Origin: Dehalococcoidia bacterium
GTDB taxonomy: Bacteria; Chloroflexota; Dehalococcoidia; Lucifugimonadales; JAGWBF01
Direction of reading: 5' to 3'
NCBI GenBank assembly: GCA_021295955.1
Contig: JAGWBJ010000016.1
Coordinates: forward strand, 1 to 64,000
DNA length: 64,000 bases
The notes beneath the pieces were generated by a model. That model had not been told where the DNA came from. It saw only the letters and a list, made by a program, of their open reading frames with translations, and made no database searches. Position 1 is the stretch's first letter. Each line of letters opens with the position of its first letter. Shown one piece after another: positions 49,040 to 49,681 of the stretch. A program made the translations under genes and the position numbers.

Positions 49040-49681
49040 ATGGCAGCGGACGACGGCAAGGCGCAGATGGGCGAGACCCCCGTAAACGTAACGGTCTGGT
49101 ACGATTACATCTGACCCTGGTGCTACGTCGGCCTGGAGCGGGTCGACAGGCTCAGGGAGGACTCGGGCGTAACCGTGCAGGGCAAGGCGTTCATCTTGCG
49201 GCCGGACATTCCCAAGGAAGGCATGACCCGGGAACCTCGGCCCGGAGAGGTCGGCGACCAGCTCAGCGAGCCCCTGCGCACCTTCGCCGAGGAGGCCGGC
49301 TTGGTGATGCGCCGTTCCTCCTGGACGCCCAACACGATGTACGCCATGGAGGCGACGGAGTACGCCCAGCAGCAGGGGCAGTTCGACGCCTTCCACCTGG
49401 CCGCCTACAAGGCCTACTGGGAGGACGGGAAGGACCTGGGCGACTTGGACGTGATCCGCGAGATTGCGCTGGGCTGCGGGCTGGACTGGCCCGAGCTATC
49501 CCGGAGGCTGGAGTCCGGCCACCACCGGAGCGACGTCCTGGCCCAGCACCAGCAGGCCCTGAGCCTGGGGGTAAACGCCATACCGGCGTTCCTGGTGGGA
49601 AACCAGTTCTTCATGGGCGCCCAGAGATACGAGATCTTCCAACTGGCCCTGGCCAGGGCCAAGGAAGCGACGCGGGCCTAG
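49040..49681 (+). CDS. DsbA/FrnE-like thiol:disulfide oxidoreductase, candidate selenoprotein (in-frame TGA at 49112..49114)
   Basis: GGAGGGG RBS, ATG 49040, MAADDGKAQMGETPVNVTVWYDYI-[TGA]-PWCYVGLERVDRLREDSGV...; frame intact to TAG at 49681; TGA occupies the first Cys position of CPWC. Confidence 0.82.
49112..49157 (+). promoter_or_regulatory. candidate bacterial SECIS element
   Basis: TGA then CCCTGG(49115-49120)/TCAGGG(49152-49157) and GCCTG(49131-49135)/CAGGC(49147-49151) stems; 11-nt apical loop GAGCGGGTCGA starts with G. Confidence 0.65.

What the first reader, a model, noticed from the sequence alone, without database searches (positions are those of the whole stretch)
49040..49681. 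Hidden selenoprotein: DsbA/FrnE-like oxidoreductase with TGA in place of the first active-site Cys (U-P-W-C)
The supplied ORF track starts this protein at 49175, inside the gene. Reading upstream in the same frame gives ATG at 49040 behind a GGAGGGG RBS and MAADDGKAQMGETPVNVTVWYDYI-TGA-PWCYVGLERV..., with no other stop until 49681. In DsbA/FrnE/HCCA-isomerase proteins this position is the N-terminal nucleophilic Cys of CPWC, which is where selenocysteine replaces Cys in redox enzymes. The rest of the protein looks intact. Sec-containing DsbA-like proteins are known as a class, so the possible novelty is this subfamily, lineage and context.
Basis: partly seen in the sequence, partly recalled or inferred. 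Interest (0 to 1): 0.92.

Follow-up and report, generated by a model that had tools for sequence, protein, structure and literature searches.

The report
Hidden selenium enzyme in Chloroflexota bacterium
A gene that automatic annotation cuts short actually encodes a full-length disulfide-handling enzyme whose key active-site residue is the rare selenium amino acid selenocysteine; the call is solid, but this kind of selenoprotein has been known since 2005, so this is a new, badly annotated member rather than a new kind.

Summary
Confirmed. Window 49040-49681 (+) is one frame interrupted only by TGA at 49112-49114, giving a 213-aa DsbA/FrnE-fold protein with UPWC at the active site. The parent MAG has selA, selB, selD (itself with an in-frame TGA) and tRNA-Sec(UCA). 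In 98 genomes of the same order, 44 of 46 homologous hits carry TGA in exactly this column; across the phylum sample I read 111 TGA copies, none with another in-frame TGA and all keeping the second Cys. The one Cys copy close to the family (G042) sits in a genome where no selA, selB or tRNA-Sec was found. A hairpin 19-21 nt after the TGA fits the bacterial SECIS model. It is stabler than synonymous-codon shuffles in Sec copies but not in Cys copies (p=2e-12). All 120 best public homologs begin after the TGA. Most likely it is a cytoplasmic FrnE-type selenol/thiol-disulfide oxidoreductase; substrate and electron donor are unknown. DsbA-like UxxC selenoproteins are published (Sargasso Sea 2005, GOS 2008): a new member of a known kind, widespread in Chloroflexota.

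The parts
49040..49681 (+). Complete selenoprotein gene: 213-aa DsbA/FrnE-like oxidoreductase, ATG start, TAG stop, one in-frame TGA
49030..49037 (+). Ribosome-binding site-like GGGAGGGG just before ATG
   Evidence: sequence, (by eye)
49112..49114 (+). TGA codon read as selenocysteine, position 25, first chalcogen of UPWC
49121..49123 (+). TGC codon, Cys28, resolving cysteine of UPWC; kept in 111 of 111 TGA copies
49127..49147 (+). Putative bacterial SECIS hairpin: 5' arm GTCGGCCTG, loop GAG, 3' arm CGGGTCGAC; loop begins 19-21 nt after the TGA depending on whether the two closing pairs form
49175..49681 (+). Truncated ORF that automatic annotation reports (GTG start); lacks strand 1 and the active site

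Best explanation
The gene encodes a selenoprotein: a cytoplasmic, single-domain DsbA/FrnE-fold selenol/thiol-disulfide oxidoreductase. The UGA at 49112 is decoded as selenocysteine by SelB and tRNA-Sec, guided by the hairpin directly downstream. Inferred chemistry: Sec25 is the exposed nucleophile of the UPWC motif. It attacks a substrate disulfide (or is attacked as the selenenylsulfide), Cys28 resolves the mixed intermediate as a Sec-Cys bond, and the presumed cis-Pro loop (P182) holds the substrate. The lack of a signal peptide-like start and the similarity to D. radiodurans FrnE point to cytosolic disulfide reduction or isomerisation under oxidative or metal stress. Shown here: frame, conservation, machinery, hairpin signal, predicted fold. 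Inferred: actual Se insertion, redox direction, substrate, electron donor.
For: Single in-frame TGA in an otherwise intact PF01323 protein. selA, selB, selD and tRNA-Sec(UCA) in the parent MAG. TGA at the identical column in 44 of 46 same-order hits and 111 of 167 homologs in all; 55 others TGC/TGT; no second in-frame TGA; resolving Cys kept in every TGA copy. 41 of 41 same-order genomes with the TGA form show at least one Sec-specific gene: selB in 39, tRNA-Sec in the other two. The Cys-form genome G042 has no hit to selA, selB or tRNA-Sec. In the phylum sample 70 of 71 TGA-form genomes have selA against 253 of 328 others, Fisher p=1e-6 (lists compared by hand). Hairpin: window z=-4.1, 0 of 200 synonymous shuffles as stable; group mean z -1.35 and -1.01 in Sec copies, about +0.1 in Cys copies, MWU p=2e-12; published bSECIS criteria met by 106 of 111 Sec, 28 of 56 Cys, 148 of 222 shuffles. 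Fold: pLDDT 92.5, best PDB hits FrnE 5co3/5cnw/5cp1, TM 0.79-0.81.
Against: No expression, proteomic or 75Se data. RNAalifold found no single consensus stem, probably because the stem slips between registers. The covariation signal is modest and slid controls reach similar scores. The bSECIS criteria alone are weakly specific (148 of 222 shuffles pass). Presence of the gene is patchy: 42 of 98 same-order genomes, absent from the one same-family genome. One TGA-form draft genome (G192) showed no selA hit. In the order-level sample, selB presence against gene form is not significant by itself (p=0.19) because nearly every genome has selB.
Confidence: 0.95

Rival explanations
1. The TGA is a real stop or a sequencing error or pseudogene mutation; only a downstream start (GTG 49175) makes a short protein.
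For: Every one of the 120 best public predictions of the family starts after the TGA.
Against: The TGA is conserved at one column in 111 homologs with no other in-frame stop; coding-type substitution continues upstream; the truncated form would lack strand 1 and the CxxC.
Confidence: 0.02
2. UGA is decoded as cysteine (opal tRNA-Cys) or as tryptophan by a changed genetic code.
For: Cys is the residue in TGC/TGT homologs, so Cys insertion would also work.
Against: A canonical tRNA-Sec(UCA) with SelA, SelB and SelD is present. Other genes in the window use TGA as stop. Trp has no support at this column. The excess of hairpin stability is found only in TGA copies.
Confidence: 0.02
3. It is a selenoprotein, but not a disulfide oxidoreductase: for example a glutathione S-transferase kappa / HCCA-isomerase-like enzyme or a selenium-based peroxidase with the same fold.
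For: HCCA isomerase and kappa GST structures are also significant fold matches.
Against: UPWC with an invariant resolving Cys and FrnE as best sequence and fold hit. The HCCA and kappa GST active site uses Ser instead of a Cys pair (own knowledge).
Confidence: 0.12

Closest known systems
DsbA-like selenoprotein (UxxC), Sargasso Sea 2005 (PMC1088965, COG2761) / 'DsbA 1' of GOS 2008 (PMC2398784) / 'DsbA-like protein form 1' in the 2026 review (PMC13188914)
   Same: PF01323 domain, UxxC motif, bacterial SECIS after the UGA, marine abundance
   Different: Those reports give metagenome reads and family tables; the passages read do not mention Chloroflexota/SAR202 or FrnE by name for this family. 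I could not compare sequences directly.
D. radiodurans FrnE (DR_0659; 5cnw, 5co3, 5cp1)
   Same: Best sequence (8.5e-19) and fold match, CP(W/F)C active site, cytoplasmic DsbA family
   Different: 26% identity in the fold alignment; Sec in place of the first Cys; no C-terminal CX4C regeneration motif (0 of 111 Sec copies), as also reported missing in D. maricopensis and S. roseofulvus FrnE (PMC8945050)
Rcas_1661 family thioredoxin-like (seleno)lipoprotein, NF041057
   Same: DsbA-type thioredoxin fold, Sec/Cys alternation, named after a Chloroflexota locus
   Different: 46.6 bits against a cut-off of 190; the NF041057 product is a lipoprotein, ours has no signal-like N-terminus

Membership tests
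Bacterial selenoprotein | In-frame TGA aligned with Cys in homologs and conserved across species | tested here: met
Bacterial selenoprotein | selA, selB, selD and tRNA-Sec in the genome | tested here: met
Bacterial selenoprotein | bSECIS hairpin 16-37 nt downstream, G in first two loop positions, MFE <= -7.5 | tested here: met
   excess over synonymous shuffles
Bacterial selenoprotein | Selenium demonstrated in the protein | not testable with these tools
   needs 75Se or mass spectrometry
DsbA-like UxxC selenoprotein (PF01323) | PF01323 domain with UxxC | tested here: met
FrnE subfamily of DsbA | FrnE is the closest solved structure by sequence and fold, with CP(W/F)C | tested here: met
FrnE subfamily of DsbA | C-terminal CX4C present in many (not all) FrnE | tested here: not met
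   it is not an obligate feature according to PMC8945050
FrnE subfamily of DsbA | cd03024 domain assignment | not tested
   CDD is not available here
FrnE subfamily of DsbA | Cytoplasmic location | tested here: inconclusive
   N-terminus MAADDGKAQMGETPVNV has no hydrophobic segment by eye; no predictor run
Rcas_1661 (seleno)lipoprotein NF041057 | Score over curated cut-off | tested here: not met
   46.6 vs 190 bits

The most novel reading that the evidence does not exclude
Selenocysteine is a frequent and old state of a cytoplasmic FrnE-like oxidoreductase throughout Chloroflexota. Cys forms arose repeatedly, sometimes with loss of the Sec machinery, and the protein has been hidden because gene callers cut off its active site. 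If FrnE's role carries over, this would make a widespread environmental phylum partly selenium-dependent for cytosolic disulfide repair.
Probability: 0.5. Interest if true: 0.45.

Novelty: new member of a known kind. Interest (0 to 1): 0.32.

Why it matters
It corrects a systematic annotation error: all 120 best public homologs are cut downstream of the catalytic residue. It also documents a selenoprotein in many Chloroflexota genomes, including single-contig ones (G171, G202, G357), which gives routes to test why an FrnE-type reductase would use selenium.

Tried and rejected
RNAalifold consensus on 42 aligned regions gave no structure, probably because the stem slips among three registers. 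Covariation counts exceed shuffles but not all slid controls, so I do not rest the SECIS claim on covariation. Conserved gene neighbourhood: none. The flanking CoA-transferase III, TPR and glycosyltransferase genes are not shared with relatives beyond one weak CoA-transferase match, so context gives no functional lead. A scan for further Sec candidates (CxxU, UxxC, CU and similar) in the window gave only 49112 as convincing; the rest look like spurious out-of-frame ORFs (by eye). A search for papers joining selenoproteins with SAR202 found none; those with Dehalococcoidia or Chloroflexota were listed but not opened.

Full report
Observation. The window reads ATG at 49040 behind GGGAGGGG, then MAADDGKAQMGETPVNVTVWYDYI-TGA-PWCYVGLERV..., and stops at TAG 49681. 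TGA 49112-49114 is the only in-frame stop. The read-through product matches PF01323 (DSBA) at 7.5e-34 across residues 17-204. The ORF caller starts at 49175.

Conservation. In 98 genomes of the same order, 42 have a homolog, giving 46 hits. Forty-four have a TGA and it always falls at this column, in D-Y-x-U-P-W/F-C. The exceptions are G042 (TGC) and a distant paralog in G008 (TCT, L068). Adding a phylum sample and a scan of GTDB genomes for DYICPWC, I read 167 homologs: 111 TGA, 42 TGC, 13 TGT, 1 TCT. The second Cys is present in all 111 TGA copies and there is no second in-frame TGA. Within the 14 closest relatives, codons upstream of the TGA change mainly at third positions (13/17/80), so they are translated.

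Machinery. The parent MAG (2.56 Mb, 87.7% complete) has selB (364 bits), selA (530 bits), selD (380 bits, with its own in-frame TGA in HCAGUAAK) and a tRNA-Sec with anticodon UCA. All 41 same-order genomes with the TGA form show at least one Sec-specific gene: selB in 39, and tRNA-Sec in the two where selB was not found, G020 and G026; G020 also has selA. G042, which has TGC, shows no selB, selA or tRNA-Sec hit. In the phylum sample 70 of 71 TGA-form genomes have selA, compared with 253 of 328 others (lists compared by hand).

SECIS. In the window gene a stem GTCGGCCTG/CGGGTCGAC with a GAG loop lies at 49127-49147, 19-21 nt after the TGA. The 45 nt after the TGA fold 4.1 s.d. below synonymous-codon shuffles, 0 of 200 as stable. 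Across copies, Sec genes have mean z -1.35 (order) and -1.01 (phylum), while Cys genes sit near +0.1; p=2e-12 (related copies are not independent, so the p-value is nominal). This contrast within one protein family is the strongest RNA evidence. The published bSECIS criteria (PMC13188914) are met by 106 of 111 Sec copies but also by 28 of 56 Cys copies and 148 of 222 shuffles, so passing them alone is weak evidence. RNAalifold and covariation counts were negative or modest.

Protein. AlphaFold gives pLDDT 92.5 and pTM 0.87 (Cys was modelled in place of Sec). The best solved structures are D. radiodurans FrnE, by sequence 8.5e-19 and by fold TM about 0.8. D22, Y23, U/C25, P26, C28 and P182 (the presumed cis-Pro) are invariant in the 34-member alignment. 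FrnE's C-terminal CX4C is absent from all 111 Sec copies, as in some known FrnE (PMC8945050). D. radiodurans FrnE is described there as a cytoplasmic disulfide reductase/isomerase linked to cadmium, diamide and oxidative stress tolerance. I carry that over as the most likely role, by inference only.

Evolution. On a quick tree of 163 copies the Sec/Cys label needs 19 changes (at least 11 forced by well-supported branches), compared with about 45 for shuffled labels. Sec is therefore clustered but has switched many times. The direction of change was not tested, because the root is arbitrary and the Cys set was picked by a Cys-specific pattern.

Known or new. DsbA-like UxxC selenoproteins were reported from the Sargasso Sea in 2005 under COG2761 (PMC1088965), in GOS as DsbA 1 to 3 (PMC2398784), and as 45 DsbA-like proteins in 41 organisms in 2016 (PMC5029168). 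COG2761 is the FrnE COG to my knowledge. The finding is therefore a well-supported new member of a known kind. The new parts are the Chloroflexota distribution and the uniform truncation of all 120 best public homologs, none of which starts before the TGA. The lineage is named from kin: close public homologs are labelled Dehalococcoidia and SAR202 cluster bacteria, and the same-order genome G042 matches a Dehalococcoidia MAG contig by sequence and contig length.

Noticed in passing
G000:C6:52470-53390 (L017, TGA near 1530): The parent genome's selD is itself a selenoprotein gene (HCAGU-AAK), a known Sec-SelD type.
   Followed up: partly
window 45063-45594 (+): Phd/YefM antitoxin (PF02604, 2.3e-10) followed by the front of a PIN-domain protein (weak, below cut-off) that ends early next to an enoyl-CoA hydratase gene: probably a truncated toxin-antitoxin pair.
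   Followed up: partly
L061, L062, L063 (G004, G067, G081): Three genomes carry a second, diverged Sec paralog (DYTUP[W/F]C) besides the main one.
   Followed up: no
L069, L070 (G054, G021): A distant TGA-containing DsbA-like protein (SDYLUPWCYVA, about 28% identity) in the same order, possibly a separate selenoprotein subfamily.
   Followed up: no
phylum sample: selA was found in 323 of 399 sampled Chloroflexota genomes, so Sec use looks very common in this phylum.
   Followed up: partly
G192: A draft genome with the TGA form but no selA hit; assembly gap or real loss not checked.
   Followed up: no
window 29181-29536 (+): Cluster of three tRNA genes just before an EF-Tu/SelB-like GTPase gene (29623-30498 match).
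   Followed up: no
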